Assembly: GCA_037355855.1 (NCBI GenBank)
Contig: CM074759.1
Location: 8,184,001-8,248,000 of the forward strand
DNA length: 64,000 nucleotides
Source: Pseudo-nitzschia pungens
Lineage: Eukaryota > Bacillariophyta > Bacillariophyceae > Bacillariales > Bacillariaceae
Reading direction: 5' to 3'
Shown here piece by piece: positions 11,141-50,356 of the stretch (within the stretch, counting starts at the first letter, position 1; the number at the start of each line of letters is the position of its first letter). The notes under the pieces are model-generated. The model saw only the letters and a program-made list of their open reading frames with translations. It ran no database searches and had not been told where the DNA came from. The position numbers and the translations under genes were made by a program.

Positions 11141-11214
11141 AAATAAAAACACAAAAACAAGAGTCCAGACGACAACAGAATTTCACTTCCCTTTGGAATT
11201 CAAAACCTCTATAG

Positions 11215-11277: not shown

Positions 11278-11299
11278 AAGACGAGACAGAACAAAAACG

Positions 11300-12838
11300 A
11301 TGCAAGCCCCAAGGCAGCAGGAGCAACAGAAGCAGCAGCAGCAACAACAACGCGTGGCGCTTCCGTGTCGACGCCCGAGCTCCCGCGCACGGCAGAGACG
11401 AAGACGAAGACGGGTTTCATCCCCGCGGACGATTTGTCTGGCGGCACTTTTATTGACCGCGCCCCTGTTGTTCTCCGTTGCACCCGTCGCCGTTGCCGTT
11501 GCCGTTGCCGTCCCCGTCGCTGCGGAGGAACCGGACCAAGCGAATGCGACCGCGACCGTGACCGCGAATCCGTCGGAGATGCCGACGGAGACGCAGACGC
11601 TGTTTCTGAGTCAGAGTCAGACCGACAACGACGACAAAAACAAAAACAACAACAACAACAACAGCAACGAAGACGACTACGACGACACTTCCTCGGAATA
11701 CCTCCCCACCTGGAGGGACGCCGTCTTTTTGGGCGTCCGGTACCTCGGCTTTTGCGTCCTGGTCTGCTACCCGTGCCTCCGCGGCATCTGCCTGTGGCAC
11801 GCCGCCGGGGGACGCGTCCTGCTCCGGTGGAGCGGCGGCGTCGGCGAGGACGGCCGGGGACGGGGCTTTGTCACCGGCCTGCGCTTCCAGCCCGCCGATC
11901 TGGAGCGGTGGCTCGCCCTCTCGGGATTCAACGAGCCAGCGGGACCCTCGGGGGTCTTTGGATTCCCCGGGGGAGGGGCCTACGGGAGCGGGGGCCGGAA
12001 CGGGGCCCGGGTGCTGCTGACGGAAGAGGAGGTCCTGGAGCTCCCCGAGGTGGTGGTGAGGGACGTGGACGTCGACGTCGATGTGGATGGCGATGCGGAT
12101 GTCGATGGCAATGTGGATGTCGATGCGGATGTCGATGCCACAATCGAAATGGTGACCATTGCGGCCGGAACGGACGACCCCGTCGACAATGGCAATGGCG
12201 CATCGGAATCACAATCACAATCAGAATCCGAACCAACGGCAACGGCAGCGGCAACGGCACCGGAAGCGCCACCCGAACTCGGTGATTCCGGCTCCGATTC
12301 CCGACATCCCTCCACATCATCACCATCACCATCAACACCACCATCATCAACAACTACCCGTCACCACACCTCCACCCTGTCGACCTCGTGCTCCATCTGC
12401 CTCGAGGACTACCGCGCCGGCGAAACGGTCCGCTTGCTTCCCCGCTGCGGCCACGCCTTTCACACCGATTGCATCCTTCCGTGGCTCACGGAACGCCAGC
12501 CGTTTTGTCCCTATTGCAAGCTGGCGGTCAAGGAGACTCCGAGCGAGGACAACAATGGAAACGGAAACGGAAATAGCAATGGCAATGACAACAGCAATGA
12601 CAACGGCAACGAATCATTGCCATCCACCACGACACCCAATGAAGCCCGGGCCCGGGGAGGAGCAAGCACCACCACCAGCGGCAACACCGAGAACGACGGA
12701 ACCGCCAACCAATCCGGGGGCAGCGGAAACTACGGCCGAAACTCCGGAAACTATTCCGGCAGCAACTACACCAACTCCTCCTACTACTACAACGGCAACT
12801 ATCCCAACAGCGGTTACGACCGCAACGCGAGGCGGTGA
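11300..12838 (+). CDS. Membrane RING-H2 E3 ubiquitin ligase
   Basis: A 512-aa protein. After a Gln/Arg-rich start comes a hydrophobic stretch (about residues 44-75) that can act as signal peptide or anchor. A second membrane segment lies near 137-163 (VRYLGFCVLVCYPCLRGICL). The RING finger is at residues 364-406: CSIC, CGHAFHTDC, then CPYC, the C3H2C3 pattern with the conserved Pro before the last cysteine and the W of LPWL. RING-H2 proteins recruit an E2 and pass ubiquitin to substrates; membrane forms (ATL or Goliath/RNF13 type) act at endomembranes. The regions around 110-130, 250-360 and after 410 are Asp-, Ser- and Asn-rich and likely disordered. The substrate cannot be told. Confidence 0.88.
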   Translation: MQAPRQQEQQKQQQQQQRVALPCRRPSSRARQRRRRRRVSSPRTICLAALLLTAPLLFSVAPVAVAVAVAVPVAAEEPDQANATATVTANPSEMPTETQTLFLSQSQTDNDDKNKNNNNNNSNEDDYDDTSSEYLPTWRDAVFLGVRYLGFCVLVCYPCLRGICLWHAAGGRVLLRWSGGVGEDGRGRGFVTGLRFQPADLERWLALSGFNEPAGPSGVFGFPGGGAYGSGGRNGARVLLTEEEVLELPEVVVRDVDVDVDVDGDADVDGNVDVDADVDATIEMVTIAAGTDDPVDNGNGASESQSQSESEPTATAAATAPEAPPELGDSGSDSRHPSTSSPSPSTPPSSTTTRHHTSTLSTSCSICLEDYRAGETVRLLPRCGHAFHTDCILPWLTERQPFCPYCKLAVKETPSEDNNGNGNGNSNGNDNSNDNGNESLPSTTTPNEARARGGASTTTSGNTENDGTANQSGGSGNYGRNSGNYSGSNYTNSSYYYNGNYPNSGYDRNARR

Positions 12839-31000: not shown

Positions 31001-33129
31001 CTTTCTCCGTAGGTACGTAGGCTAGCCATTCATTTCTTTTATTTCATGAATTGAAATGATATGATTTTATAAATTTATTCTGCTTGGATGCTTTCTTTTG
31101 GCCATCTGCATTCATTGCAGTCGCATTTTTTGATCAAAATGCAATGACAAGTAACATTGGGATTTTGAGCACGTTGACCGAAATAAATTTTGGTATGTCG
31201 ATAGCGTATTTGTGAAGTGTGCTGTTTAAAGATGCGTTTTATTACTACATCTTACTTTTATCGTTGGTTCGTTATATCTTCCTGTCTAATGGTGTATTTT
31301 GATTGTCTTTTCTAATATTTTAGCTGAGAGTGATTTGACGGGATCTATTCCAAGTGAGATTGGACAACTCACTGAATTGAACAAGTTAGTTCTATGTATG
31401 TATTTTGTTGGTGGAATGATGTGAACTGTTTTGATGCAGGTGCTGTATGAGAGGGAATGTTGCATTGTAATGTCTGACAATGTGTTTTGATTCATGCTTC
31501 TTATTTCATTGTATTAGCTGAGAATGATTTGACGGGATCTATTCCAAGTGAGATTGCACTCCTCACTGGCTTGACTATGTTAGATCTATGTATGTATTGT
31601 GTTGTTGAAATGATGTGAACTGTTTTGAAGCAGGTGCTGTATGAAAGGGAATGTTGCATTGTAATGTCTGACAATGTGTTTTGATTCATGCTTCTTATTT
31701 CATTGTATTAGCTAGGAGCTTTTTGAGAGGATCTATTCCAAGTGAAATCGGACTCCTCACTGGCTTGACTGTGTTAGATCTATGTATGTATTGTGTTGTT
31801 GGAATGATGTGAACTGTTTTGAAGCAGGTGCTGTATGAGAGGGAATGTTGCATTGTATTGTCTGACAATGTGTTTTGATTCATGCTTCTTATTTCATTGT
31901 ATTAGCTGAGAATGATTTGTTTGGATCTATTCCACGTGAAATTGGACTCCTCACTGGCTTGACTGTGTTAGATCTATGTATGTATTGTGTTGTTGGAATG
32001 ATGTGAACTGTTTTGCAGCAGGTGTATTTTGTGGGTTTGTTATTTCTTCCTGTCTAATCGTGTAATTTTATTGTCATTTCTTCTTTTAATATTGCAGCTG
32101 ATAATCTTTTTTATGATTGGGATGGAATTATTCCATCTATTCCAAGTGAGATTGGACAACTCATTGGCTTGACTGTGTTAGATCTATGTATGTATTGTGT
32201 TGTGTTGTTGGAATGATATGAACTGTTTTGAAGCAGGTGCTGTATGAGAGGGAATGTTGCATTGTATTGTCTGACAATGTGTTTTGATTCATGCTTCTTA
32301 TTTCATTGTATTAGCTAAGAGTTTTTTGAAAGGATATATTCCAAGTGAAATTGGACTCCTCACTGGCTTGACTGTGTTAGATCTATGTATGTATTGTGTT
32401 GTTGGAATGATGTGAACTGTTTTGCAGCAGGTGTATTTTGTGGGTTTGTTATTTCTTCCTGTCTAATCGTGTAATTTTATTGTCATTTCTTCTTTTAATA
32501 TTTCAGCTGATAATAATTTTTATGGTTTGCATGCATCTATTCCAAGTGAGATTGGACTCCTCACTGGCTTGACTGTGTTAGATTTATGTATGTATTGTGT
32601 TGTTGAAATGATGTGAACTGTTTTGAAGCAGGTGCTGTATGAGAGGGAATGTTGCATTGTATTGTCTGACAATGTGTTTTGATTCATGCTTCTTATTTCA
32701 TTGTATTAGCTAGGAGCTTTTTGAGAGGATCTATTCCAAGTGAAATCGGACTCCTCACTGGCTTGACTGTGTTAGATCTATGTATGTATTGTGTTGTTGG
32801 AATGATGTGAACTGTTTTGAAGCAGGTGCTGTATGAGGGAATGTTGTATCTTCCAAGTTAATGATGTGTTTTGATTATTGTTTCTTATTTTAATATTTTA
32901 GCTGAGAATGCTTTGACTGGATCTATTCCCACTGCAATGCGTTCTCTGATTGGATTAAGGCTGTTGAATTTGGGTACGTTGCTGATTCTAATTCTTTAGC
33001 TTGGAAAAGGAAGATTTGGCATGATTATTCTCAAGGTTAAAAAACCATTCTCGTTCTTACTCTTGAAATTTTCCAGGGAAAAATGACTTGAAAGGACGCC
33101 TTCCCGAAAGAGAGAATCCTTTTTCATGA
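28065..33129 (+). CDS. Polytopic LNR-LRR receptor-like protein, 13 exons
   Basis: I joined 13 exons: 28065-29855, 29941-31012, 31121-31192, 31324-31395, 31518-31589, 31712-31783, 31906-31977, 32098-32187, 32315-32386, 32507-32587, 32710-32781, 32902-32973 and 33077-33129. All introns are GT-AG and the frame closes exactly, giving 1,220 aa. Exon 1 encodes a cytosol-like N terminus and about ten hydrophobic segments; exon 2 adds another (ITVCTISAFIFGLIILITSC). The likely extracellular part has a Lin-12/Notch repeat (CNDFGNGRCDLELNE, then DEGDCC) and ten or more leucine-rich repeats of the form GSIPSEIGLLTGLTVLDL. LNR and LRR modules bind proteins or peptides, so a cell-surface receptor is plausible. 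No kinase or other signalling domain is seen. The start is the first ATG in frame (another at 28071). The final repeat is truncated by the stop. Confidence 0.85.
31324..32901 (+). repeat. Tandem array of one-LRR exon-intron cassettes
   Basis: Eight exon-plus-intron units in a row, each coding one 24-aa LRR (72 bp; two are 90 and 81 bp), with starts 192-217 bp apart. Introns come in two near-identical types: about 122 bp with GGTGCTGTATGAGAGGGAAT, and 120 bp with GGTGTATTTTGTGGGTTTGT. They are arranged A-A-A-B-A-B-A after the first, and the last intron looks like a hybrid. All introns are phase 1, so gain, loss or skipping of a cassette keeps the frame. Exons at 31712 and 32710 encode the same 24 residues. 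Confidence 0.92.
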
Positions 33130-36476: not shown

Positions 36477-37194
36477 TGTTGTTGTTGTTCTTCTTCTTCG
36501 TTTGTGACGTGTGTTCTTTGGGAATCGGATGGATCGAATGGAAGGGTTGGATGCACTCCTCTCTGATTCTCTTGTCGGTTCGATTCTGAATTCGATGGAT
36601 TGGCGCGAAGAATTCCGAAGAGAATATAACGTACGTATCTGGTCTGTGCAACTCTTATCAACAATAGTATCGGGCTGGATATCGATGGTGATGGTGCCGG
36701 TTCGTACGAGTACGGTGTTGGTACGGTTGGAGTGATGAGTAAGTTAATCTTACTGTTGTTGGTTGTTGTCGACAATCGACAATCAAAGATGAGAGCGCCG
36801 AACTTCCCAACCAACGACGTTGGTTGAACTCCCCCAAACTTTCGTTGGAGAGAAGATTGCGCACGGATCCTCAGTACGTACGTACGTACGTATGGACGTA
36901 GAGTACTTGTACGTTCGGTAACCTTACGCACCAGTACAAGCAAACTTACCGTTGTTCGTAGTTTTGGTCTTCGTCTTCGTCGTCATCGTCGTCGTCATCG
37001 TCGGTGCACATCCACGAATGGAGTAAGATTGAGTCTTGAATTCACTCCGGGAGCCAAGAATGAATGAATCATCATCAATCAATCAATCAATCGGCTCATC
37101 ATCGAGGACAATCATCGTCCTTCATCCTCAACGAGACGAACAATTTTCGGTGTCCGAAGTCGAAAAGGCAAAGGGGAAAGGGGAACCCAGAATT
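36477..37194. other. Spacer between LTO1-like gene and transposon
   Basis: Promoter side of the LTO1-like gene. GTAACCTTAC lies at 36918-36927, next to a GTAC run (36877-36895). 36950-37110 is low in complexity (TCGTC and ATCA runs). No gene seen. Confidence 0.65.
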
Positions 37195-37302
37195 GAGTCT
37201 GCGGGAAATCATATTTTTCTACAGTTCGTCCTCCAAAAAACATGTGTTGAGGGAATCGAAACTACATTTAGGGGAAAAAAATAAAGAAATTCCCGCAGAA
37301 GC
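37195..37302 (+). repeat. Left terminal inverted repeat of the 12.7-kb transposon
   Basis: Identical by eye to the reverse complement of 49831-49938. It starts with GAGTCTGCGGGAAA, so the terminus itself carries the CTGCGGGAA iteron found repeatedly inside. Confidence 0.92.
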
Positions 37303-37317
37303 AGAAGAAATTCCCGC

Positions 37318-37466
37318 TGAAGCGAAAAACGCTCCCGTAGAAGCAAAAAACGCTCCCGCAGAAGCAAAAAACGCTCCCGCAGCTGAGGGAAAAAAAAAAA
37401 ATTCCCGCAGACACCAATTTTGAACAAAAAAAAAATTTGGTGTCTGCGGGAATTTTTTTTTTTTCC
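37318..37466. repeat. Left subterminal iterons and hairpin
   Basis: Four copies of CGCTCCCGCAGAAGCAAAAA or a close variant (21-bp period, 37318-37381) are followed by a hairpin with arms 37387-37420 and 37434-37466. The arms contain ATTCCCGCAGACACCAA and its complement and are matched almost base for base. Confidence 0.85.
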
Positions 37467-37897
37467 CGCAGGCTGCGGGAAAGTGCCCAAAAAATTGGAG
37501 CAAGCTTAATTACACTGGAGTAAGATTAAATACACTGGATCAAGCTTAAATAAATTGGATCAAGGAGCAAGCTCAAACAAATTGGAGTACCGCACGGTAG
37601 CGGAGTTTTGGCGAGCTAAAAAATGTTGTTGTTGCAGCTTCTCTGTTGTCGCCGGACACCAACAGTAATGGCAATGGCGACGGAATCCTCGGCGGCGTGG
37701 GAGTCCACAAGCCGGTGGGAGAGCTACTGGTGGAATCCATCTCTACGAACAACCATTGTTCGCACGGAGCGGGACAGCGCATGACATGAATCATCGACAT
37801 CACCCAAATGGTGGTGAACACCAAGGAATGAATGAATCATCGGAGACGACTTGGATCCGATTCGATCCGATTCGATTCGATTTGATTCTGTGCCGGG

Positions 37898-37968
37898 GAT
37901 GCTTGGCGATGCTTGGCGATGCTTAGCGATGCTTGGCGATGCTTGGCGATGATTTGCGATGATTGGCG
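37898..37968. repeat. GATGCTTGGC decamer repeat
   Basis: About seven tandem copies of a 10-bp unit (GATGCTTGGC with a few changes), inside the left part of the 12.7-kb transposon. 37970-38533 has no supported gene; an open frame at 38212-38508 is unassigned. Confidence 0.85.
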
Positions 37969-38533
37969 AGCTTTCGCATTTCCCTTGCCCTAAGCGATCA
38001 CAGTAACTTACTAATTTTCTAGATATCGATATACATCACCCAAGTTAATCATACACGGACAGATAATTTTTTACTTGAAATGGGTCTGTGTGTTCATTCA
38101 CATCGTTTATGTGGGAGTAAGACCTTTCATGTTACTCGTAAGGTACTTGTAACATATTTCATGTTGTACGGAGTAAACCTCATTATCCATGTGTAAGTTA
38201 CTCTCGTACGAGTGGAATTCCTACGTACATGTAGTGGGGGACGTCTGTCGAAAATTTTTCAATTTTTAAAGTATCAACATCGAATACCGGTACTTGTATC
38301 CACTCTCATGGAGTATGTTGTTCATCAGAGAACAAAAAATTATGTAGGCACCGTTCGAATCAATTTCATTAAGACTGCCTCAACGTTTAGCTGCTTACTC
38401 CGACCGGATTTTAGCTCAACGGCAGCTCTGGGCGATGAATGCGGGGGGGGACCTGTTGCAGCTGTGTCAATTCGCGACTGGTTGCAGCTTTCGAATAGAA
38501 CTCCATAATTTTGTCTCATAAACGTAAGTGAGG

Positions 38534-40024
38534 ATGTGGAATGATAAGTGCAATGCGGCCTTGGACCTCCTATTCCAAGAGGAAGAGATCGTAGATCCTA
38601 TCTGGAATGAGCCTCATGAGATTGACCAGGTTTATGAGATGTCACCTGTGTTTGCCGAGAACAATGTCAAGAAGAAAAACTTCTATACCCATTTCAGGAA
38701 ACGAGCGAAAAAGTTCATCATTAATAAATCATTGCAGGGTGTTCGTAGAAGTGAGTGAGGTGTTTCATCAGATACGACAGACGTTTACGGCTGTCTGACA
38801 TCACCTTTTTCCCTTTTTTTGTTCGCTACAGGAGAATTGGAATTAAAGGGCAAAGTTCTCCAGAAACCCAAGTCCCATTTCGTTGCAGCAAAAACAAATA
38901 AGAAGGCGAAAGAAGCAGCTTCGTCCTCTCCCAAAGAAAAGCCTCCTTCGCCCGAATCCGTTCGAAAGGCACCGTCGAAGTCTCTTCCGACAAAACCGGC
39001 GCAAAAGGCACCGTCGAAGTCTCTTCCGACAAAACCGGCGCAAAAGGCACCCCCAACGTCTCCTCTGACATCGACGCCCAGAGCATCCGTAACGTCTCCT
39101 CCGACAAAACTGGCGCCAAAAGTACCTGCACCTCTTAAGCCTTCAACAAAAACGTCTTCGCAGTCTCCCACCGATACCATGAACTCTCTTGAAAAGCAAA
39201 TCGTCTTCTTCCCTGACGGGCGTTGTTTCTGTCGATTCCTTCTTCCTCAAAATTTTGACGGAAGTTTGTCCATTGCCGAGAGTAAAACTGAGATACTTAT
39301 GGAGAGGACTTTCCAGAAATCACACTTTGGTCCGGCAGCCGCTGTTGAGACGTCAACACATCACGTTGGAAAAGCCGATTGCAATCATTTACTTCACGCT
39401 GGATTGAAAGTTGAGCTTGAGAAGATTTGGGACACCGTCGCTGAATTGGGGGTTCCTGACGATCCGAATTTCATTGAAGTGAAAAAAGAAGGCGAGTCTT
39501 TGGTAATTGTAAGTCGTATTTTCACACTACCTTTCGAAGTGAAACCCTTTTTCTACGACATCGAAATGCGACAAGAACAACCTGTCATTGATGATCTCAA
39601 GTCAGGTTCATGGGCATCTTTTGTCGTTCAGAAGCAAACTGAAATTACGACCCCTGGACGCCAGAGACTTCGACGCCGTACGATTAAAAGTGGTGGTAGT
39701 AATTGCGGACCAAGGGGCAGAGACGACATCACCATGGCAACCGGGGTTCGAGACGACTTCACCATGGACCCTAGAGATCCAAAACGCTCAAACAACTACG
39801 AAAACAACTCTATTGATCCAAACAGCATGTTCGAAGCTGCCTCCGACATCCATACTCGAGTCGATGATGATTTGTGAAATGAGAGTATCTCGTTACCTCC
39901 CGTAGATTCATATGACGATGCGTCGTTTGAGTCATTGAATATTGATCCAATTGCAACATTGAGAGAAGCCAACAGCCATCTGTTAGAACTTGCGTCTTAT
40001 ATCAACCAATACAATCACAATTAA
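38534..40024 (+). pseudogene. Two-exon transposon cargo gene with in-frame TGA
   Basis: Exon 1 from ATG 38534 to 38750; an 81-bp GT-AG intron (38751-38831) joins it in frame to exon 2. Exon 2 reads to TGA at 39875-39877, giving about 420 aa. The same frame then stays open to TAA at 40022-40024 and looks coding (SFESLNIDPIATLREANSHL), so the TGA may be a nonsense mutation, or the full protein ends there in this copy. The N terminus is charged (YTHFRKRAKKFI). A Lys/Pro/Ser linker has two copies of KAPSKSLPTKPAQ, then a folded-looking region of about 190 residues (QIVFFPDGRCFCRFLLPQ, FTLPFEVKPFFYDIEMR). No known family is recognised. Its position inside the transposon makes it cargo. Confidence 0.6.
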
Positions 40025-40468
40025 GTAAGGCTAGTCTTATTATTATTACCGAAACTGCCCCCACTTCTTTGCGAGCCACGTGACCGAATCGCTTCCAAAA
40101 AGCGTTCCACGGCATTTTTTTTTCTCGAATTTGAACGCTTCGTGTTGTTCCACGACAATACTACTATTACGAAGTATTATTTTTTTTTCATGTGACTTGC
40201 TACTATTGTTACTGGTAAGTAAGTACGTACTCGTACGTAGTTTACACTGTGTAAGGATTATCTTCTGGTCCACACGGATTATGCGCGTTCCTATGACACA
40301 TCACGGATCATGCGGAATATTTTTAGTACTGGTACATGTACCCGTACGTGTGTGGTGGAACAAGTTTGTCGGGAAGACGTGAAATCTCAATTGCAAGCCC
40401 TGCAAGCGAATCGGCATAGCCTCGAAACCAGTGAAGATGCCCAAACATGTTCATGAACTCAATGTAGT

Positions 40469-40968
40469 NNNNNNNNNNNNNNNNNNNNNNNNNNNNNNNN
40501 NNNNNNNNNNNNNNNNNNNNNNNNNNNNNNNNNNNNNNNNNNNNNNNNNNNNNNNNNNNNNNNNNNNNNNNNNNNNNNNNNNNNNNNNNNNNNNNNNNNN
40601 NNNNNNNNNNNNNNNNNNNNNNNNNNNNNNNNNNNNNNNNNNNNNNNNNNNNNNNNNNNNNNNNNNNNNNNNNNNNNNNNNNNNNNNNNNNNNNNNNNNN
40701 NNNNNNNNNNNNNNNNNNNNNNNNNNNNNNNNNNNNNNNNNNNNNNNNNNNNNNNNNNNNNNNNNNNNNNNNNNNNNNNNNNNNNNNNNNNNNNNNNNNN
40801 NNNNNNNNNNNNNNNNNNNNNNNNNNNNNNNNNNNNNNNNNNNNNNNNNNNNNNNNNNNNNNNNNNNNNNNNNNNNNNNNNNNNNNNNNNNNNNNNNNNN
40901 NNNNNNNNNNNNNNNNNNNNNNNNNNNNNNNNNNNNNNNNNNNNNNNNNNNNNNNNNNNNNNNNNNNN
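40469..40968. other. Assembly gap of exactly 500 N
   Basis: 500 undetermined bases, a placeholder length. The gap lies inside the 12.7-kb transposon and removes the C-terminal part of the cargo gene that starts at 41500, so the true element length is unknown to that extent. Confidence 1.
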
Positions 40969-41500
40969 CTTGGTTACTTCCAGAAAGGGTCGGATCCCAT
41001 CCAAATGCACCTTTTTGTTTTACGTAGGTCCAATACATGAAGCACACCCACTGAGCCTCGGGCTTGAGACAGTAGTACTCCGAAATTAGATCATTTCTCG
41101 TGAGGGTCGAACGCCTCTTGAAATGGGGCTCGAACATCTCAACGTTTTCGCAAGCTCGCTTCTTATGATTTGGACTGGTTGATGCCATGAAGCGAATCTT
41201 CTTCGAAGGTGTATTGCTTTTGTCTTGTAGAGTTCTCTTTGTACTAGCATTCGAATCCTTGCCGACAACCGAAATAGTGTCAGATGGAACTTTGTCAGGA
41301 CTATCGATGGCATCGATGGCAAGGTTCTTCTTAGACTCCGAGCTTTTAATTGGCGTAAAAAGTGGGCATTTGTCCGTGATTGCTTCAGATTTTGGGATCT
41401 TCTCAAATTTTGCGATGTAGCCAAGTCTCAATGCTTCCGCATCAGTCTTGCGTTTCAGGGCAAGGAAATCAGTATAATCGTAGGGTTCAGGAAACTCCAT
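40969..41500 (-). CDS. GWDP-family cargo protein, 3' part lost in gap
   Basis: Minus strand from ATG 41500 into the N gap; 177 residues are visible. The first 135 residues are Lys/Ser-rich with a likely nuclear-localisation cluster (KRTLQDK, KKIRF, NHKKRA). Then comes WVCFMYWTYVKQKGAFGWDP, which matches CYKFWSYEYY...GWDPNL in the cargo protein at 46263-47036 and ICYHYYRF...GWTP in the one at 45046-45792. The C-terminal QMA.LA.R.V motif seen in those two would fall in the gap. Function unknown; this is a member of a family found here three times within one transposon. Confidence 0.7.
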
Positions 41501-41639
41501 GGTTTCGTCGTTTGATATCTTTGATGATGATTATTATGACCAATCCGCACCATCTGTGATGATCTGTGATGGTCGACTCTATGCACCGCGATTCCATGGG
41601 TGCCACTGTGCCGTACGCACCCTGAGTCGATCCGATGGT

Positions 41640-41860
41640 ATTCATCTCGGTGGTTGGATGTTCAAACTTTCCTCCTTGATTACAAACGGTTTCCTCCTTG
41701 ATAACAAACGGATTCCTCCTTGATTACTAAAGCACATGATTTTTCCCTCTTAAGATGTTTAAACCGACATCGGACAAACACTTCGTTGACCTTTCCCTCC
41801 GTAGATTTTTAAACCGACATCAGACAAACACTTCGTTGGCCTCCTCCCCAAAAAAATCCC
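41640..41860. repeat. Short local direct repeats in the transposon
   Basis: Three copies of CCTCCTTGATTACAAACGG-like units (41670-41725), then two copies of TTAAACCGACATC(G/A)GACAAA (about 41757 and 41810). They lie in the spacer between two minus-strand cargo genes. Confidence 0.75.
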
Positions 41861-42051
41861 GTGACGGTAAGGTTCAAGGTCATATAAATCAAGTTAATTT
41901 AAAATAAATACGGAGTAGTATTGAAGTATGTATGTAAACGAGCGATAAAGAGTACTCGCCAAAATCGAATACTGAAGAGGCATATCATTTTGTTTCGTCG
42001 CCAAAAGTAAATATACTGCGATCAGAACCGCCAAAAGGAACTATACTGCGA

Positions 42052-44112
42052 TCACAACGATGCAAGCTTGAGACCGTTGTTCACCTTCCTTTTCTTTGAG
42101 GCTTTGTTCTCCGCTCCATCGGGTTTTCGCTTGACTGTCAGCACCCTAGTACCGTCCTCTGCCAGAATTGTTTCACCGTCACTTTCGTATGATGCTTCGA
42201 AACACTGTCCGTCATTCACCACAAAATCCTTCACAACGTTGGTTTTTCTGGTACCGCATAGGTACTTTTGGTACTCATGCACATCGTTCGTGAGCAAGAA
42301 GTTACATCCATTCATACAAACACGTGGATCTTTACTATCTTCCTCAATTCCATCGGTGTTTGTGAAACATAAACGCATGTCCTCCGGAATATCCATCGGA
42401 TTTTCCAATGCAGCAACCAGATCACGCATATCGTTACAAAACTTTTCAACCTCAAATTCCCCATCTGGTACTAAAAGAGCATAATGTGGAGTTTTCAGTC
42501 GAGCTTGCTCCTTCTTCTTGTTTCGAGAATCCTGTCTCAAGTTATCGATGCTCAACAGATAATGCGATAGCTTTGGATAACCTTCCAGCGCTCGAGAGCA
42601 TGTCTGTGCACTTTTTGTCGCTATGAGGCATTGACCAAGCTTTCTATGCGCTGTTTCGTCCTTCGGGCTATGCGCATTCTTCGGCGGATCATAAACTCTA
42701 GATCGTCCATTGGACCTCGCTTTCTTGGGAACGCACCCGTCATTGTCACTCCAATCATCGTCATCGCTCTCCGTTTCAAATTCCTGGTTGGCGGTGGATG
42801 CGACCCGTTTCTTGCTGGTAGCAGCTTCTCGTTCGTCTCCACAGGTTGGAGCTGTAACGTTCTTTTCTGCAAGACGGCCAACGGAATCCTCATCAAAGTC
42901 CTCTTCAGGGCTAGACGCAAAAAAGTTGTTGTCACTGTTGCTTTGCTCCTGGGTAGTATCGGGAGCGGGAGCAGCAATCGGGAGCCTTTTTCCTTCGGTA
43001 GTAACTGTTTTTTCTTTGCTGGTTGAGACCTTGCTTTGCTCCTCGGTAGTAACTTGGGCGGGAGCAGGCATTTCGTCTTCGCTGGTTGTTGATCCTGAGA
43101 CATTGAAGTCGGTGATTTGCGCCCTGGTAGTAACAGGAGAGGGAGTCACAGTAGCGTCCACTTTCTCGGTTGTAGATTCTGAGATGTTGTTTTGGGTATT
43201 GATAGCATTGGAAGGTGAAATCACAGACGCGTTGCTGTAGTCGTCATCGTCGTTATTGCTTCCGTTAGTTGCGTGATCACCGCTGTTGTGATCAATTGCA
43301 GGCATCTTACCGTCAATATCATCACCTGAGCCAGTGGCATTCTCTCCATGGGACTTGGCTGGAGACCCCTGGGTCACACCCTGCTGGCCGGTGGCATCGC
43401 CGGGTTCGTCGAGTCGTCCATTTGTCACCCGCTCGACACCATCAAGACGAGCATGCAGCTGAGAAACAACCAAGTCGAATCGGTGAGCAATCGACTCAGG
43501 CACTCGCTGGTGGAACCGGCCGTCTTTCACGCCAGGCACTCGCTGGTGGATGCTAGAGTCCCTATTGCTGCCCCTTCCAGCACCTTTTGGAGGGGTCGCG
43601 TCTTCAGCTTCCGCCGTGGAGGCATTGCTAGAGTCTCCATTGCGGGTTGCGTCATTGCGGGTTGCGTCTTTGCTAGAGTCTCCATTGCTGCCCGCTCCAT
43701 TGCTAGAGTCTCCATTGCGGGTCGCGTCTTTGCTAGAGTCTCCATTGCGGGTCGCGTCTTTGCTAGAGTCTCCATTGCTGCCCGTTCCAACACCTTCCGG
43801 AAGGGTCGCGTCTTCATGGAGATCATCATCAAAATTCCCCAATGCAAATCTAATTCTTGCGCGCTTGAGGGCACACTTCAATTGTGTCAATATCTTCATT
43901 TTTGAACCGTGATGCAAAAAAAGGCTGTGGCCCTCGTTCATACCTTGTACAGTGCTAGTCAAGTAGTTGTATGTCTCTTCGGCTGCCTCTAGAGTTCTTC
44001 CTCTAGAATACTCGGGTCCTCCACACAACGCGTGAACAGAAGTCCAGTGGTTTCCTCGACCGTACGCAACAATGTTGAACAGGTCAACAAATCTATCCAT
44101 TTTATTGCTCAT
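42052..44112 (-). CDS. Chimeric cargo protein of unknown function
   Basis: 686 aa from ATG 44112 (MSNKMDRFVDLFNIVAYGRG). An N-terminal region of about 100 residues is followed by repeats of NGDSSKDATR (about 112-165), then a stretch (around 205-255) whose DNA is the antisense of a mitochondrial carrier fragment. A long acidic Ser/Thr-rich middle follows, with basic clusters (KKRVAS, PKKARSNGRSR) that may be nuclear signals. A more ordered C-terminal region of about 190 residues begins near HRKLGQCLIATKSAQTC and includes HYALLVPDGEFEVEKFCNDM and VCMNGCNFLLTND. No family is recognised. The C-terminal region looks like a real domain; the middle is low complexity. It is an intact ORF and the longest cargo gene. 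Confidence 0.65.
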   Translation of the reverse strand: MSNKMDRFVDLFNIVAYGRGNHWTSVHALCGGPEYSRGRTLEAAEETYNYLTSTVQGMNEGHSLFLHHGSKMKILTQLKCALKRARIRFALGNFDDDLHEDATLPEGVGTGSNGDSSKDATRNGDSSKDATRNGDSSNGAGSNGDSSKDATRNDATRNGDSSNASTAEAEDATPPKGAGRGSNRDSSIHQRVPGVKDGRFHQRVPESIAHRFDLVVSQLHARLDGVERVTNGRLDEPGDATGQQGVTQGSPAKSHGENATGSGDDIDGKMPAIDHNSGDHATNGSNNDDDDYSNASVISPSNAINTQNNISESTTEKVDATVTPSPVTTRAQITDFNVSGSTTSEDEMPAPAQVTTEEQSKVSTSKEKTVTTEGKRLPIAAPAPDTTQEQSNSDNNFFASSPEEDFDEDSVGRLAEKNVTAPTCGDEREAATSKKRVASTANQEFETESDDDDWSDNDGCVPKKARSNGRSRVYDPPKNAHSPKDETAHRKLGQCLIATKSAQTCSRALEGYPKLSHYLLSIDNLRQDSRNKKKEQARLKTPHYALLVPDGEFEVEKFCNDMRDLVAALENPMDIPEDMRLCFTNTDGIEEDSKDPRVCMNGCNFLLTNDVHEYQKYLCGTRKTNVVKDFVVNDGQCFEASYESDGETILAEDGTRVLTVKRKPDGAENKASKKRKVNNGLKLASL
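43348..43485 (+). pseudogene. Captured mitochondrial carrier (SLC25) fragment, antisense
   Basis: Read on the plus strand, this patch encodes TLLAGGIAGFVESSICHPLD followed by TIKTSMQLR: the first helix end and signature P-x-D-x-x-K of mitochondrial carriers, closest in feel to succinate/fumarate-type carriers. It lies inside, and antisense to, the long cargo ORF 42052-44112. The patch is GC-rich compared with its AT-rich surroundings and ends near CGGTGAGC, a possible splice donor, as expected for capture of a host exon with its intron edge. It is only about 45 codons and cannot be functional as a carrier. Confidence 0.8.
43590..43805. repeat. 30-bp minisatellite in cargo ORF
   Basis: Tandem GCGTCTTTGCTAGAGTCTCC units with CATTGCGGGT, several complete and some partial. 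On the minus strand they encode the NGDSSKDATR repeats of the 42052-44112 protein. Confidence 0.85.
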
Positions 44113-44245
44113 GATCTTTGATTATGAAGTTCTGGAGGTGCTCCACGGTCAGAGAGGGAGACCTCTCTAGTTTACAACACAGTGTCATTTTCACGATGAT
44201 TGCAAAATAGAGAGCAAAAAATCATTCCCGGTTTTTAAAGAGAAA

Positions 44246-44336
44246 GAAACCATGAAGACAAAGCAAGCCCTGCTTTTATCCACAATCGAAGAAACCATGA
44301 AGACAAAGCAAGCCCCGCTTTTATCCACGATGGAAA
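44246..44336. repeat. 45-bp tandem duplication
   Basis: GAAACCATGAAGACAAAGCA begins at 44246 and again at 44291. The copies differ by few bases. It lies in the spacer 5' of the 44112 gene. GTAAGGTTAC is at 44364-44373 and 44834-44843; 44340-45045 holds no supported gene. Confidence 0.8.
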
Positions 44337-45045
44337 CCATGGAGGGAGTGCTCATCATCATACAGTAAGGTTACCCACGATGATGTGCTGATGTATCCAC
44401 GGTGAACAGTTTGTAGCGGTATCGCATCTACAACCGCCGCCGCAACCACCACCGCAACTGCGACCTCAACAGTTACGCACAAATTGAGAGCCTCATGGAT
44501 AACCTTCCTCCGTTCCAAAATAGATACGTAGAATCAATACCAGAAAAATGTGCGCAAGGGCATTTGGGTCATAATTATGACCCCGTGTGATTAAAAAAAC
44601 ACACAAGTCATGTGGGATCGAAAAATAAGTCATGTGGGATCGAAAAATAAGATGATATGAACGCCTAAAAATGTACGAATCACTCATTGTACGTGTTTCT
44701 ACGAGTATCAATAGTTTATTTTCTTACTTCGAAAAAAACCGTAAAACATGAATGTATTACTTCGTACAGTTACTAATTACTTCAGTAGTACGTATATTTT
44801 TATTTTTTACAAGAAAACACTGTAGTGCAACGAGTAAGGTTACGGGTAAACCTTACATCTACTCACTTAGTTTTTTTTAGATTGATCTAGTCGATTCATT
44901 CTAATTGACGTTGAACAACATTTTTTGTGTGGTTCTTTTTTTGGGTTGGTACGTGCCTTTTCAGGGGTCATCACATGATCCCTGGTTCTCTCCGTCTTTC
45001 ATGTCTTTTGTGTGGTTCTTTTCTCTCCGTCTTTCATGTCTTGAA

Positions 45046-45792
45046 TCACCATGAAAGATGATCAGGCCCGGGAGGCCCGAGAGGCCCGCGATGAGGTTCC
45101 TCCTCCGACTCGGCCTCCGACTCGGCCTCAAACTCGGCCTCATCAACATACCCTGGTTCCGGTTCCGGCATTCGTGACGCAGACCTAAAATGCATTGGCA
45201 TTGGTTCCGGCACTGGTTCCGGCACTGGTTCCGCCACTGGTACCGCAGACCCGTCATCAGGTGGAGATGGAGGTGCAGGTGCAGGTGCAGGTGGAGATGT
45301 TGGTGGAGAAAGGTGAACACACCCACCGACCATACGGCCGGCCAGATCTGCCATCTGATCACAAACAAGACGAAACCATCTTAAAGATGGAGAGCCAAGA
45401 ATCTTGAGAAAGCCGTATTCCTGATGATGAAGGTCACTGCCGGGTCTGCAGGGTGTCCAACCTTGAATACCGGAGGTTTCGATGAATCGATAGTAGTGGT
45501 AACAGATGATTTGATTGATCGCAGGTTCCAGCAAGTATTCCGCAAGCGGGCTACTATTTTTTTCAGCTCCCGACACCAATCCGACCACGGGGATGTAGTC
45601 ATCCAGACTTCCTTGAGATGGTTTGTATTGGCGCAGTGACGAACAATAATTCCTGAATCCGGCATTGTTATCCTGAGAAGGTTGAGTAGCAGGCTTCAGT
45701 TCCAGCCATAGGACTCGATCACCATGCTCTCCATTGTTGTGGTTGGATGCATTACGAAGTGCAGCAAGTGCCTCTTGGATTTGAATATTCAT
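45046..45792 (-). CDS. GWDP-family cargo protein, Pro-rich tail
   Basis: 248 aa from ATG 45792 (MNIQIQEALAALRNASN). Residues 80-160 hold the shared family region: LEPAINQIICYHYYRFIETS, GIQGWTP, and near 140 CDQMADLAGRMVGGCVHLSP. The last motif matches SEQMAKLALRLVEEDVFLNA in the cargo protein at 46263-47036. The tail is Pro/Ala/Glu-rich (PVPEPVPEPMPM, then EAESEAESEEE). It is divergent to the 46263 gene, with a spacer of about 470 bp. No known domain is recognised; it may bind nucleic acid or protein, but nothing in the sequence proves that. Confidence 0.7.
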   Translation of the reverse strand: MNIQIQEALAALRNASNHNNGEHGDRVLWLELKPATQPSQDNNAGFRNYCSSLRQYKPSQGSLDDYIPVVGLVSGAEKNSSPLAEYLLEPAINQIICYHYYRFIETSGIQGWTPCRPGSDLHHQEYGFLKILGSPSLRWFRLVCDQMADLAGRMVGGCVHLSPPTSPPAPAPAPPSPPDDGSAVPVAEPVPEPVPEPMPMHFRSASRMPEPEPGYVDEAEFEAESEAESEEEPHRGPLGPPGPDHLSW

Positions 45793-46054
45793 GGTTTTCT
45801 AGGTTGAAAAGTCCTTTTTATGCGCGGAACAGGTGCGTTCAATTCTATCCATCACCAATCTGAAGTGAGGATGATAAGGCTTTCATGCGATTTAAATCTC
45901 CTGGCCCTCTGCACTGTATCGAACCACATATATTTCATCGAAATTCTGTTGCAAAGCACCTCTGGACTGCCAAATACTTGATGGAGGCGACACCGAAAAT
46001 TAGGGGCAGCGCACTAAGTATGGATCCACATATTTCATGCTGGTTGGCGACAAA

Positions 46055-46200
46055 ACGTTGGCTAGAGATTCCATTTGTATCGCTGATTGGAGAGAGATCT
46101 TAAAAAAAAAACAGCAACCGGAAGAAACGACGCACGTTGGCTAGGCATTTGTATCGCTGATTGGAGAGAGATCTAAAACAGCAACCGGAAGAAACAACGC
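46055..46200. repeat. About 79-bp tandem duplication upstream of cargo gene
   Basis: ACGTTGGCTAG..CATTTGTATC to CAACCGGAAGAAAC(G/A)ACGC occurs twice (46055-46133 and 46134-46200). The second copy has lost part of the poly-A and a few bases. It lies in the shared promoter of two divergent cargo genes. Confidence 0.8.
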
Positions 46201-46262
46201 AATGTTATGGCAGGTCGGCATCTGATCAGCGACTACTACCTATGGCATAAAATGCGTGACCT

Positions 46263-47036
46263 ATGACGGTGGACGACATGAACAACGCAAACATCTTCTC
46301 AGGCTTCCTTGGATCCGTCCTTCTTTTCAAAGCATTGTCAGTTGTTGAGATTCTTTTGCTCTTGACGATCCTCATTTCTATCATGGAGAAAGAAATCGAC
46401 GATTTTGTTTTCGTCAATATGCCGCTTTTTTTCCATTCGCCCTATCGTCCCTCGGAGGATGATGACAATGATCCCGAGCTGGAGCAGCTCAGGGAACGGT
46501 TTGAAGCGCTCAGTAGAGACGACCCCGTGAACGGCATTGAAAGAGAGCCAGAGTCCATGGACCACAATCTGCCTGATTCCTATCAACTCATTTCAAGGAA
46601 TAGTACCCTCCGCACGCCGCGTCATTATGATGACGATGATGATTCAAACTCCATATATGCTGACTTTGGAAACTGTCTTCACGGAGTCGAAGTCGTCTCT
46701 CTTCGTGATCCGACCAACTGCCCTTGGGCGCCCAGATCTCTACGTGAATTTGCAAATCTAGGCCGTGTCGCTATGGTCATCTGTTACAAGTTTTGGTCCT
46801 ATGAATATTATGAGGATGGGTTCTCGCTCGATGGTTGGGATCCCAACTTAGTTGTTGGGGGAGTATATTGGAACAATTCCGTATTCGGAAAAAGAGAATA
46901 TTATTCAAGTTCTATTTTTCGAAAGAACATGACCTATGCTGAATTTTGGTCCTGTTCGGAGCAGATGGCTAAACTTGCCCTCCGGTTGGTTGAGGAGGAT
47001 GTTTTTCTTAATGCTCATCGACTTTCTCTTGATTGA
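46263..47036 (+). CDS. GWDP-family cargo protein with N-terminal hydrophobic segment
   Basis: 257 aa from ATG 46263. A hydrophobic stretch at about 12-42 (GFLGSVLLFKALSVVEILLL) could be a membrane anchor. The middle is acidic. The conserved family region is at about 165-250: REFANLGRVAMVICYKFWSY, then DGWDPNLV, YAEFWSCSEQMAKLALRLVE and EDVFLNAHR. It is the most complete of the three paralogues in the element and defines the motif order ICY..(W/Y)-x6-8-GW(D/T)P ... (S/C).QMA.LA.R(M/L)V. Function unknown. Confidence 0.7.
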   Translation: MTVDDMNNANIFSGFLGSVLLFKALSVVEILLLLTILISIMEKEIDDFVFVNMPLFFHSPYRPSEDDDNDPELEQLRERFEALSRDDPVNGIEREPESMDHNLPDSYQLISRNSTLRTPRHYDDDDDSNSIYADFGNCLHGVEVVSLRDPTNCPWAPRSLREFANLGRVAMVICYKFWSYEYYEDGFSLDGWDPNLVVGGVYWNNSVFGKREYYSSSIFRKNMTYAEFWSCSEQMAKLALRLVEEDVFLNAHRLSLD

Positions 47037-47213
47037 AGAAAGGTGCCACACATTCGTAGAGGGAATTTTCTCTCACTTCAGAGAGACGTATAGAGGCACG
47101 TTGGTAAGAAAACTGTAGGGAGACGTCACGCATTTATTTACAATTATAACACAATGGTTAATCGTTATATACTACTAGTTATGTACGGAATAAACTAGAA
47201 ACATTCTGGCTGC

Positions 47214-48611
47214 CTATACCACCTCCTCATCAGAAACTTCACCAAGCCCAAATTTGTCTCCTTCCATATCTATACCGTAAAGTGGTTGGATTTGGTATTG
47301 CTGTTCAATTTGAGTGATTACAACACAGCTCGCCATCATCCACTCATGCTTCGTTATTTTTTGTGCCGGATCTCCCTTGGCTCTAAAACTACTTCTGAGG
47401 CACCGGAATCGTTTGATTCGTTTAAATCCAGTTTCAAACCGTCCTTCAATTCTTTTGCACCAGTATGTTAGTTCGGCATTGCCACAAACACCTACAGCGC
47501 CCAGACAAATAACTTTTTCAGGAGCTTCCGCAATACACCCCTTATCTGTCACGATCCTTTCACCTCTCTCTAGTTTGTGCTTCAACTCTTGTCGGAAGAT
47601 AGTAAGATCATTCCAATCACCTGGTAGGTAGGGCCCTGCGAAGTGTACTATGTCATTCGTTAAAATGGACCACCCTACTTCATAACGAAGAGCGGGTCCA
47701 TTTATTTTCGGAGAGTAAAGTGATTTGTTTATCTTGGGCCCTCGTTCATGACTTTTCGGAATCTTCAATTGTGAAAAAGGAATGTCTGTACAATCGACGG
47801 ACACCAACGCATCATATCCCCTATCGAACTTTTTTCGATTCTCCCAAAGAATCACATTGTCTTTCAAACTCCAGATCGTTTCAAGAAACACCCAAATCCA
47901 CTTGGTGATCGTCTTTTGATCTGGTTCTTTACGAGCATCTTTCTCTTTTACGGCTGGCCCCATGCATCCAATGGATGTATTCGTCTTCAAAAAAAAGAGC
48001 GCGTACAGAAGGTGGACGGGCTTCGCCTTGTCACTGACGCACTTTCCTTTCAGATAGGTTTGGTTGACACAGCCCCGTTCCTCAATGAGCTCCCATATCT
48101 TCGCCATTACAACCGGCGCCGTCCCAAATCGACATCGGATGCGATTCGCACGGCTATCATCTGAGAGTTCTTCGCAACCCGCCAAACTAGATGCAATTTT
48201 TTCAAACTTTGCAGCAAGAGCTTCGTTGGGGAAGGTGAGATCCGAAATTTTGGGAGAGGAGGGAGGGGTGGGATTTTGACGTTCTCCTGCAACCAGATGA
48301 TTGTCGACCATGGCGTACGCACCCACTCGTGCTGCTCGTGCTGCCCTCACTTGCTCGCCGTAATTTATCTCTCCAACCTGGTTTATAAATGATCCTTGCC
48401 GAGCGTCTCCGAGTTCCATGTTCGCAAATCGACGCCCCAGTCCTAGTGTATCGAACTGATGGCGATACGAGTTTTCTTGACCGCTGGGCAAATGCCCAGT
48501 ACGCCCAAGTGCTTCGAACTCTTGGCAGTTTTCCTTATTGTCTGACTGTCCCCAATTCATTATTCCGATATTGGTCTTGTGATTTATTCTGATTATGATA
48601 TATGTAGACAT
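47214..48611 (-). CDS. IS5/Harbinger-like DDE transposase
   Basis: 465 aa from ATG 48611. The first 130 residues are variable. A helical region (about 130-230: FGTAPVVMAKIWELIEERG, KPVHLLYALFFLKTN) resembles the DNA-binding part of such transposases. The catalytic core (about 270-440) has SVDCTDIPF (first Asp), KINGPALRYEVGWSILTNDI, GPYLPGDWNDLTIFRQ (second Asp), IVTDKGC, then RIEGRFETGFKRIKRF (Glu candidate) and WMMASCVVITQIEQQY. This order matches DDE_Tnp_4 proteins of Harbinger/IS5-type elements, which usually make 3-bp target duplications, consistent with the ATT at the ends. The ORF is intact and is presumed to mobilise the 12.7-kb element. No separate Myb-like partner gene was recognised, although one cargo ORF could fill that role. 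Confidence 0.82.
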   Translation of the reverse strand: MSTYIIIRINHKTNIGIMNWGQSDNKENCQEFEALGRTGHLPSGQENSYRHQFDTLGLGRRFANMELGDARQGSFINQVGEINYGEQVRAARAARVGAYAMVDNHLVAGERQNPTPPSSPKISDLTFPNEALAAKFEKIASSLAGCEELSDDSRANRIRCRFGTAPVVMAKIWELIEERGCVNQTYLKGKCVSDKAKPVHLLYALFFLKTNTSIGCMGPAVKEKDARKEPDQKTITKWIWVFLETIWSLKDNVILWENRKKFDRGYDALVSVDCTDIPFSQLKIPKSHERGPKINKSLYSPKINGPALRYEVGWSILTNDIVHFAGPYLPGDWNDLTIFRQELKHKLERGERIVTDKGCIAEAPEKVICLGAVGVCGNAELTYWCKRIEGRFETGFKRIKRFRCLRSSFRAKGDPAQKITKHEWMMASCVVITQIEQQYQIQPLYGIDMEGDKFGLGEVSDEEVV

Positions 48612-49539
48612 CTCTCATGCCAGAGAGCTGAACAGCGAACATCTTCCTCGACGTGGACGTCGTTGCTATCCGTTTTTGAGTCCATTCAAAATCTCTGATC
48701 ATGTGTAATCACATTATTTACACATAGATGTTGGTGAAATTTTGTCAAAATGGTCGTCCTAATCACATCATTGCAGCATTGCCGTTGACTCGAACACATG
48801 GCTGTTGGTGAAATTTGTCAGATTGAGTCCATTTAAATCTCAGATCATGTGTAATCAGTATTTGCGTTCTCTCGAACACATGGACTGAATGAAACATCAC
48901 GAACACATGGACGTTGGGTGAAAAATTTCGTCGTTGCTATCCGTGCTCATCTCAGATCATGTGCAAAAAGACCAGCCTTCAGCGCACGGATGGTGGGCAA
49001 ACGTAATCAATTTTTTAGTACAAGCACTAGCATCGTGTTATCGCTAGAGGGACATATTAACATTATACAGATTATACAGATATGAATTTGGTAATGCTGG
49101 CCCTTGTTTGGCGAGAAATTAATCTCTCTACCGGTATCGCCAAAATAATCTGAGCTCGTGCATTATTTATCGCCAAACAAAACACTCCCTCACTTGGCAG
49201 CAGAGGCAACGCCCTCTTCGTCTTCTCTGATGGTTCATTCCTTGGTGTTGACCATTTGGGTGATGTCGATGTGGGCAGTCAGCAGTCGGCAGTCGGCAGT
49301 CCTTCCCGCTGTCCCGCTTGTTCGCAGAGATGGAATACTGCCACTGCCACTGCCACTACCGGGAGGTGCGACTGCCCCTGTCCCAGAGTGTGGATCGGAA
49401 TACAGTGACGTACCGTAAATCGATAGATGAAGGTAAGGGGACGCGAGGCGAGGGGACGCGAAGCAAGGTGATCGACCGGTACACCGATGGATAAAGTTAC
49501 TCATAGATCGAGTGTATTACTACACTTAACCGTTCCCGT
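48612..49539. other. Right arm spacer of the 12.7-kb transposon
   Basis: No gene seen. 48670-48970 has diverged direct repeats around CAGATCATGTG and GTTGGTGAAATTTGTC. 49230-49280 and 49320-49340 match, in inverse, the left arm at about 37735-37830. 49280-49365 has CAGTCGG and CACTGC runs. 49440-49470 has a GACGCGA repeat. Confidence 0.7.
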
Positions 49540-49751
49540 AGCGTTAAAAACGTTCCCGCAGCGTTAAGAACGTTCCCTCAGAGTTAAAAACGTTCCCTCA
49601 GCCTTCAGAACGTTCCCGCAGAAGCAAAAACGCTCCCGCAGAAGCAAAAAACTTCCCTCAGACTGAGGGAAAAAAAATAAATTCCCGCAGCCACCAATTT
49701 TGAACCCAAAAAAAAATTGGTGGCTGCGGGAATTTATTTTTTTTCCCTCAG
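49540..49751. repeat. Right subterminal iterons and perfect hairpin
   Basis: Six units of about 20 bp with CGTTCCC(G/T)CAG lead into a hairpin whose 39-bp arms (about 49663-49701 and 49713-49751) pair perfectly. They begin CTGAGGGAAAAAAAATAAAT in the left arm; the loop is about 11 bases. The arms share the TTCCCGCAG.CACCAATTTT core with the left hairpin. Confidence 0.9.
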
Positions 49752-49830
49752 CTGCAGGAGTTTTTCATTTTTAGGGAGAAACGGTAATTCTTGAAGGAAA
49801 ATTTTTACAATCGGGAATTTATTTTTTTTT

Positions 49831-49938
49831 GCTTCTGCGGGAATTTCTTTATTTTTTTCCCCTAAATGTAGTTTCGATTCCCTCAACACATGTTTTTTGG
49901 AGGACGAACTGTAGAAAAATATGATTTCCCGCAGACTC
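49831..49938 (-). repeat. Right terminal inverted repeat of the 12.7-kb transposon
   Basis: The mirror of 37195-37302. It ends TTTCCCGCAGACTC, followed by ATT, the candidate target duplication. Confidence 0.92.
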
Positions 49939-50356
49939 ATTCAGAATGACGCTGTGGTGAGTAAGGTTAAGTTACGGTAAGATAACCTTTTTTAATCTCA
50001 CCGTTAAGGTTTCGTACTGAAAGATAAAAAATACTAATGAATTGATTCCACTATTCAATCATCTTAGAGCGCCAACGCAGACTGAACTTTGTGCCGTCAC
50101 CATTATCGTATCAGTCCACGGCTCTTGTTCCGCAAACAGAGCCCGAGAAGGAAATCTACAGAGTTTCGTGGAGAGTTGAATCAGAGTCAGAGTCAGAGTT
50201 AGTCGACAGTCGAAAGTCGAGAGAAGGAACCGACAACCCATCCATCCGCTTCGACTCGCGAGCCCAACCGAACGAAGCAAACGCGGCAAACGAAACAAAA
50301 CACGCAGCATCGCATCGCATCGCATCGTACGATACGAGTGCTGTGTCTCGATCGAG

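What the first reader, a model, noticed from the sequence alone, without database searches (positions are those of the whole stretch)
37195..49938. A 12.7-kb cargo-carrying DNA transposon with identical 108-bp ends
Two inverted 108-bp repeats with no mismatch that I can see, flanked by ATT on both sides, enclose an intact IS5/Harbinger-like transposase and at least five further ORFs. Typical elements of this type are 2-5 kb and carry one or two genes; a long one with several cargo genes of no known function may be a new lineage. Identity of the ends argues for recent movement.
Basis: partly seen in the sequence, partly recalled or inferred. Interest (0 to 1): 0.9.

Follow-up and report, generated by a model that had tools for sequence, protein, structure and literature searches.

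The report
Young 12-kb multigene Harbinger-type DNA transposon
A recently moved 12-kilobase jumping gene carries six protein genes instead of the usual one or two, and the extra genes look like the element's own kit rather than captured host genes.

Summary
The inverted repeats are identical over 109 bp, with ATT outside both. The genome also holds a 14.0-kb sister copy (8 mismatches in 11,993 aligned bp), a 3.7-kb deletion derivative, an older ~79-92% copy and many short relatives. The 3-bp target duplication is A-N-T, identical at both ends in 8 of 9 two-ended copies. The sister copy has a paralogous empty site with a single ATT. The 500-N gap equals 0 bp in the sister, so true length is about 12.24 kb. 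The transposase is a divergent DDE_Tnp_4 (IS5/Harbinger-type) enzyme; A-N-T is the target of the published Pangu group. 'Cargo' is probably the wrong word. Genome matches to the five other genes lie in transposon copies, except one 68-residue piece. Gene E recurs at 49-50% identity, 4.60-4.66 kb from the transposase, at 5 of 5 loci of a second family. Gene C shares a domain with proteins beside other transposases. B, D and E share a GWDP motif with no relative found. Indels up to 60 bp against the old copy keep frame (33 of 40 in coding sequence, 29 of 93 outside). Verdict: a real, young, giant multigene variant of a known superfamily; accessory functions unknown.

The parts
37192..37194 (.). 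target duplication, left copy (ATT)
37195..37303 (+). left terminal inverted repeat, 109 bp, identical to the right one
37199..37480 (.). left cluster of CCCKCAG/CTGMGGG sites (9 in the first 300 bp), partly inside the TIR
38534..38750 (+). gene A, proposed exon 1 (starts ATG; GT at 38751)
   Evidence: sequence; spliced translation; no RNA evidence
38832..39877 (+). gene A, proposed exon 2; spliced product 420 aa
   Evidence: dN/dS 0.59 against the old copy
40323..41500 (-). gene B (ORF of 235 codons in the C1 copy; interrupted here by the N gap); GWDP motif
   Evidence: dN/dS 0.18 on 12 differences
40469..40968 (.). assembly gap of 500 N, 0 bp in the C1 copy
42052..44112 (-). gene C (ORF of 689 codons); C-terminal domain shared with proteins beside other DDE_Tnp_4 transposases
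45046..45792 (-). gene D (ORF of 250 codons); paralogue of B, GWDP-type motif
46263..47036 (+). gene E (ORF of 258 codons); 49-50% identical homologue in family F2; GWDP motif
   Evidence: dN/dS 0.26
47214..48611 (-). transposase (ORF of 466 codons), DDE with D274, D357, E394
49528..49667 (.). right array of 20-bp-period repeats carrying CCCKCAG-like sites
49663..49751 (.). hairpin with 39-bp perfectly complementary arms
49830..49938 (-). right terminal inverted repeat, 109 bp
49939..49941 (.). target duplication, right copy (ATT)

Best explanation
[quoted passage not shown] Likely mechanism: the transposase, probably with the gene C protein as DNA-binding partner, recognises the 109-bp ends and the clustered CCCKCAG sites, cuts the element out with its D/D/E triad and joins it to a 3-bp staggered cut at A-N-T. 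Genes B, D and E form one transposon-specific protein family (GWDP motif) that most likely assists or regulates transposition; A is a further element-specific protein. Shown: boundaries, target duplication, empty site, several copies, recent movement, frame-conserving indels, recurrence of E and of the C domain beside other transposases. Inferred: cut-and-paste chemistry, site binding, the proteins' roles, present activity.
For: Perfect 109-bp ends with ATT on both sides. Three long copies in unrelated flanks; target A-N-T identical at both ends in 8 of 9 two-ended copies and A-N-T in 11 of 11 one-ended ones. Paralogous empty site with a single ATT for the C1 copy. C1 and window copies: 8 mismatches and 9 gap openings in 11,993 aligned bp, the stretch duplicated in C1 counted twice. 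The transposase matches F3 transposases in this genome (33% identity, E 1.9e-18) and F2 ones weakly (29%, E 2.5e-4); both of those pass the PF13359 cut-off; D274, D357 and E394 are invariant among 7 aligned. Indels up to 60 bp against the old copy: 33 of 40 in frame inside CDS, 29 of 93 outside, Fisher P 5e-8. E homologue 4.60-4.66 kb from the transposase at 5 of 5 F2 loci. C-terminal domain of C matches the F3 partner-protein domain (hhalign P 2e-7), which lies within 2.5 kb of a transposase match at four other loci. CCCKCAG sites: 9 in the left 300 bp, 12 in the right 450 bp, 0 in the rest of the element.
Against: Pfam and NCBIfam do not match this transposase directly. dN/dS against the decayed old copy is 1.11 for the transposase and 1.19 for gene C, so coding evidence there rests on indel lengths. 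Of 22 non-F3 matches to the F3 partner protein, 18 have no transposase match within 2.5 kb in my lists. The single-pair BLAST of C against it was not significant (E 0.067). No RNA evidence. Structure models were poor (mean pLDDT 43.2 and 41.5). F2's ends were not found, so its gene set is a repeated unit, not a proven TIR-bounded element. Gene A has no counterpart found in F2. The empty-site search matched a junction for 1 of 3 copies only.
Confidence: 0.82

Rival explanations
1. A standard two-gene Pangu-type element (transposase plus gene C) that captured host or foreign genes A, B, D and E as passengers.
For: Known Pangu elements average 3.5 kb with two ORFs (PMC4482050). Gene A and gene D have no counterpart found in F2 or F3. 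PHIS elements can pick up extra genes, e.g. TET/JBP or SET enzymes (PMC12730594 passages).
Against: No genome match of A, B, D or E outside transposon copies. E recurs in F2 with a diverged transposase at 5 of 5 loci. B, D and E are related to each other, which suggests growth inside the element. No donor found among 5.8 billion proteins for E or the B/D/E profile, though candidates were capped.
Confidence: 0.13
2. A composite of unrelated insertions between two separate short elements that happen to face each other.
For: Short two-ended relatives with similar ends are common in this genome, and the C1 copy does contain a nested insert.
Against: The same A-B-C-D-E-transposase order occurs in the C1 copy and in the old diverged copy; the outer trinucleotides match; the C1 empty site lacks the whole 14-kb block.
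Confidence: 0.02
3. The repeat copies are assembly or segmental duplications rather than transpositions.
For: The element holds an assembly gap, and some short copies share flanks, e.g. L021 and L022.
Against: The three long copies lie in unrelated flanks on C1, C2 and C6, each with ATT outside both ends; a paralogous empty site exists.
Confidence: 0.02

Closest known systems
Pangu group of PHIS transposons (Harbinger2 in Repbase, per PMC12730594)
   Same: DDE transposase of IS5/Harbinger type; 3-bp A-N-T target duplication; a second protein without known motif (gene C could be its counterpart)
   Different: Published TIRs 11-40 bp starting AG or GG, average 3.5 kb, two ORFs (PMC4482050). Here 109 bp starting GA, about 12.2 kb, six genes, site clusters at the ends
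PIF/Harbinger proper
   Same: DDE_Tnp_4-type transposase, TIRs, 3-bp target duplication, short derivatives
   Different: Target A-N-T, not TWA; no Myb/SANT match in the six proteins; six genes
HarbingerS and PHISTA (PHIS elements with a SET or TET/JBP enzyme; passages and reference titles of PMC12730594)
   Same: PHIS elements that carry extra genes
   Different: Those extras have known enzyme domains; none of A-E has. PHISTA target is TA
Giant DNA transposons of Ectocarpus (KDZ, EnSpm, Sola-1; passages of PMC12477816)
   Same: Over 10 kb, in an alga
   Different: Other transposase superfamilies; the autonomous Harbinger elements there, the ANT ones included, have two genes
Bacterial IS5 family
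   Same: A-N-T target (as stated in PMC4482050) and related DDE domain
   Different: Eukaryotic host and 12 kb; a pattern scan of GTDB species genomes found no relative

Membership tests
PHIS superfamily (PIF/Harbinger-ISL2EU-Spy) | DDE_Tnp_4-like DDE domain | tested here: met
   No direct PF13359 hit, but homology (33% over 154-439, E 1.9e-18) to F3 transposases, which pass the PF13359 cut-off as F2 does; D274, D357, E394 invariant in 7 aligned
PHIS superfamily (PIF/Harbinger-ISL2EU-Spy) | TIRs and a 0-3 bp target duplication | tested here: met
   109-bp TIR; 3-bp duplication in 8 of 9 two-ended copies; empty site
Pangu group | 5'-ANT-3' target duplication | tested here: met
   definition from PMC4482050
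Pangu group | TIR of 11-40 bp, usually starting AG or GG | tested here: not met
   109 bp, starts GA
Pangu group | about 3.5 kb with two ORFs (average; most) | tested here: not met
   about 12.24 kb, six ORFs
Pangu group | transposase falls in the Pangu clade | not testable with these tools
   no Repbase or Pangu reference sequences held
PIF/Harbinger proper | TWA target duplication | tested here: not met
   ATT, AAT, AGT and ACT seen
PIF/Harbinger proper | second ORF with Myb/SANT domain | tested here: not met
   no such match at E up to 1 in the six proteins
ISL2EU | AT target; THAP transposase; YqaJ partner | tested here: not met
   3-bp target; no THAP or YqaJ match
Bacterial IS5 family | prokaryotic insertion sequence with close prokaryotic relatives | tested here: not met
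   12-kb element in a 66.9-Mb genome; no relative by one pattern scan of prokaryotic genomes

The most novel reading that the evidence does not exclude
This genome hosts a radiation of giant (12-16 kb) PHIS transposons that share element-specific proteins: a partner protein with a DPP..HS.KD domain (gene C) and a GWDP family (B, D, E) that has multiplied within one element and has no relative found elsewhere. These would be a new kind of transposition or anti-silencing factor, and the group a new lineage marked by gene content and site-rich long ends rather than by target site alone.
Probability: 0.35. Interest if true: 0.7.

Novelty: new variant of a known kind. Interest (0 to 1): 0.52.

Why it matters
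Harbinger-type elements are described mostly as small two-gene transposons, and what their partner proteins do is unsettled (PMC4482050). One genome here holds a copy with all six ORFs and the full triad, a near-identical sister with D274N, deletion derivatives, and old copies: a natural series for asking which genes transposition needs. It also warns that the extra ORFs could be misread as host orphan genes in annotation.

Tried and rejected
Family matches: nothing significant in Pfam or NCBIfam for any of the six proteins; and 12 gene B was only the part before the gap and gene A lacked exon 1; one search repeated both whole against Pfam only. PDB by sequence: nothing for the transposase or its profile, one weak hit for the B/D/E profile (E 0.64). 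Structure: models too poor (mean pLDDT 43.2; 41.5), so no fold search was run. Protein database: 4 relatives of the transposase (38-41% identity; 8000 candidates scored); none for E (442 candidates); none for the B/D/E profile (7998 candidates). Viral contigs: no relative, no exact TIR pattern. Prokaryotic genome contigs: none.

Gene A exon 1 looked by eye like an F2 ORF; rejected by shuffles (z 0.3; the first try used a wrong frame). E against D directly is weak (z 2.6); the link runs through B and the F2 homologue (B-D 15.3, E-B 5.6, F2E-B 7.9, F2E-D 4.4). The F2 Ulp1-type protein against C gave z 5.1, which I put down to low-complexity repeats and did not use. A tree with Pangu references was not possible. 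Rfam and tRNA scans of the window: 0 hits.

Rows left out: the two TIR-to-TIR rows in the C1 comparison; indels over 60 bp in the Fisher test (all sizes: 35 of 43 in CDS, 32 of 100 outside). CDS bounds in that script differ by a few bases from the final gene bounds, and it took gene B as 40451-41500 without the gap.
Full report
Observation. The left end 37195-37302 is identical to the reverse complement of 49831-49938, and the perfect repeat extends to 109 bp. ATT stands directly outside both ends. The window is a piece of contig C2 of a 66.9-Mb, 28-contig genome. ORFs with VKOR and RF-1 domains lie on either side of the insertion. No call identifies the organism; I take it for a eukaryotic alga, perhaps a diatom, from recall only.

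It is mobile. The 108-bp end has at least 40 matches genome-wide (40 of 63 candidates scored). They include a 14,025-bp copy on C1 and a 3,657-bp internally deleted copy on C6, both with identical ends and ATT on both sides in unrelated flanks. Six further two-ended copies span about 0.7-1.2 kb (coordinates). The trinucleotide A-N-T is identical at both ends in 8 of 9 two-ended copies; the ninth (L016) has a changed left end. All 11 one-ended copies that I fetched read A-N-T. I joined the flanks of the three long copies and searched the genome. For the C1 copy this found a paralogous empty site at C1:5566670-5566796, 86% identical across the junction with a single ATT. The C2 and C6 junctions matched only their own flanks. 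C1 and window copies differ by 8 mismatches and 9 gap openings in 11,993 bp of aligned blocks, in which the 1,473-bp stretch duplicated in C1 counts twice, so movement was recent. An older copy on C2 (4.16-4.18 Mb) is 79-92% identical in segments of 385 bp or more and has two stops in its transposase.

True length. The C1 copy reads straight through the position of the 500 N. The window element is therefore about 12,244 bp and gene B is probably continuous. The C1 copy lacks about 1.65 kb that covers most of gene C and holds a 2,069-bp insert between two exact copies of a 1,473-bp stretch. The insert encodes a protein with a CxxC...H-type end that I recall as Gag-like; this was not tested.

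Genes. There are six: A (two proposed exons, 420 aa), B, C, D, E and the transposase. Coding status was tested against the old copy. Of indels up to 60 bp, 33 of 40 inside CDS are multiples of three, against 29 of 93 outside (Fisher P 5e-8). dN/dS was 0.18 for B (12 differences), 0.26 for E, 0.59 for A exon 2, 0.98 for an approximate A exon 1, 0.74 for D, 1.19 for C and 1.11 for the transposase. The last two show no purifying selection on codons; the old copy is decayed, so neutral change on its branch is expected. Shifted frames of the transposase region gave 0.71 and 0.56, so dN/dS alone is no support for that gene.

Transposase. No Pfam or NCBIfam family matches it directly. A genome search finds F3 relatives at 33% identity (E 1.9e-18) and F2 relatives at 29% (E 2.5e-4). 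F2 and F3 match PF13359 DDE_Tnp_4 at E 1.9e-10 and 2.1e-7. D274, D357 and E394 are invariant in the seven sequences aligned; that these three form the triad rests on their position in the family pattern, from recall. C1 and window transposases differ at one residue only, D274N; the partial second copy in C1 has the same change.

End structure. The motif CCCKCAG/CTGMGGG occurs 9 times in the left 300 bp, 12 times in the right 450 bp, never in the remaining 11,994 bp of the element (500 of them N), and 9 times in the other 51,256 bp of the window. On the right it sits in a 20-bp-period array at 49528-49667 next to a hairpin with 39-bp perfect arms. I read these as binding sites for the transposase or its partner; this is inference.

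Not cargo. All 9 genome matches of E and all 9 of its F2 homologue lie in copies of this element or of family F2. The matches of A (6), B (7) and D (5) lie in copies of this element. Of 8 matches of C, 7 do and one 68-residue piece on C4 is unassigned. In F2 an E homologue (49-50% identical) lies 4.60-4.66 kb from the transposase at 5 of 5 loci (coordinates); the five loci are 97.5-99.6% alike over the 3.5 kb held. F2 also carries a Peptidase_C48 (Ulp1-type) ORF (E 8.8e-15). Family F3 appears to be about 16 kb: three pairs of facing ends lie 16,040, 16,176 and 15,646 bp apart. It carries a 945-aa protein whose C-terminal domain lies within 2.5 kb of a transposase match at four other loci (C5:5747359, C5:5559106, C7:1810103, C2:6588858), out of 22 non-F3 matches; the other 18 have no such neighbour in my lists. 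Gene C's C-terminus aligns with that domain (hhalign probability 93.7, P 2e-7; single-pair BLAST E 0.067). B and D are paralogues (E 4e-9). E joins them through a GWDP motif (z 5.6 to B; F2 homologue z 7.9 to B and 4.4 to D; E to D only 2.6). No relative of E or of the B/D/E profile was found among 5.8 billion proteins, a collection in which eukaryotes may be thin and in which only capped candidates were scored.

Comparison with what is known. Han et al. 2015 (PMC4482050; parts 1 and 2 of 4 read, further passages searched) divide PHIS by target site. Pangu has 5'-ANT-3', TIRs of 11-40 bp, about 3.5 kb and two ORFs; its hosts include one heterokont and two algae. ANT-targeting Harbinger elements, and two-gene autonomous ones, are reported in Ectocarpus (PMC12477816, passages). 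PHIS elements with extra enzymes exist (HarbingerS, PHISTA; PMC12730594, passages). So the target site fits Pangu, while size, end length and gene content do not. My literature searches (listings and starts of abstracts, plus passages of four papers: PMC4482050, PMC12477816, PMC12730594, PMC6431247) showed no 12-kb, six-gene element of this kind. Most subscription papers are not in that library.

Verdict.

Noticed in passing
L062-L067; C9:45227-61266, C6:3070484-3086659, C2:6334606-6350251: A second giant PHIS-type family (F3), about 16 kb between facing 120-bp ends (85% alike), six loci fetched with up to 99.8% identity. C-W-G trinucleotides flank both ends in 4 of 4 copies checked, but are the same on both sides in only 1 of 4; in the other 3 one side reads CAG and the other CTG.
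   Followed up: partly
L073:1568-2800: Family F2 carries a Ulp1-type cysteine protease ORF (Peptidase_C48, E 8.8e-15) beside the E homologue; F2's ends were not located.
   Followed up: partly
L009/L010, C1 element positions 7507-12521: The C1 sister copy holds an exact 1,473-bp duplication around a 2,069-bp insert; a 758-aa ORF joins a Gag-like protein (recalled, untested) in frame to most of the transposase.
   Followed up: no
C1:5662739-5664136 (L030): The only amino-acid change between sister and window transposase is D274N, at the first residue of the presumed triad.
   Followed up: yes
L021:258 and L022:2073: Two short relatives on C1, about 155 kb apart, share the same 12-base flank, which points to a duplicated segment that includes the insertion.
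   Followed up: no
window 7931-10642 (-): A 903-aa ORF with DUF7869 (E 9.6e-21), a domain of unknown function.
   Followed up: no
window 28044-31020: Two long ORFs without Pfam match in a stretch of lower G+C (0.38-0.44); may be another mobile element.
   Followed up: no
whole genome G000: 65 matches to DDE_Tnp_4, 64 of them over the family cut-off: many IS5/Harbinger-type transposases in this genome.
   Followed up: no
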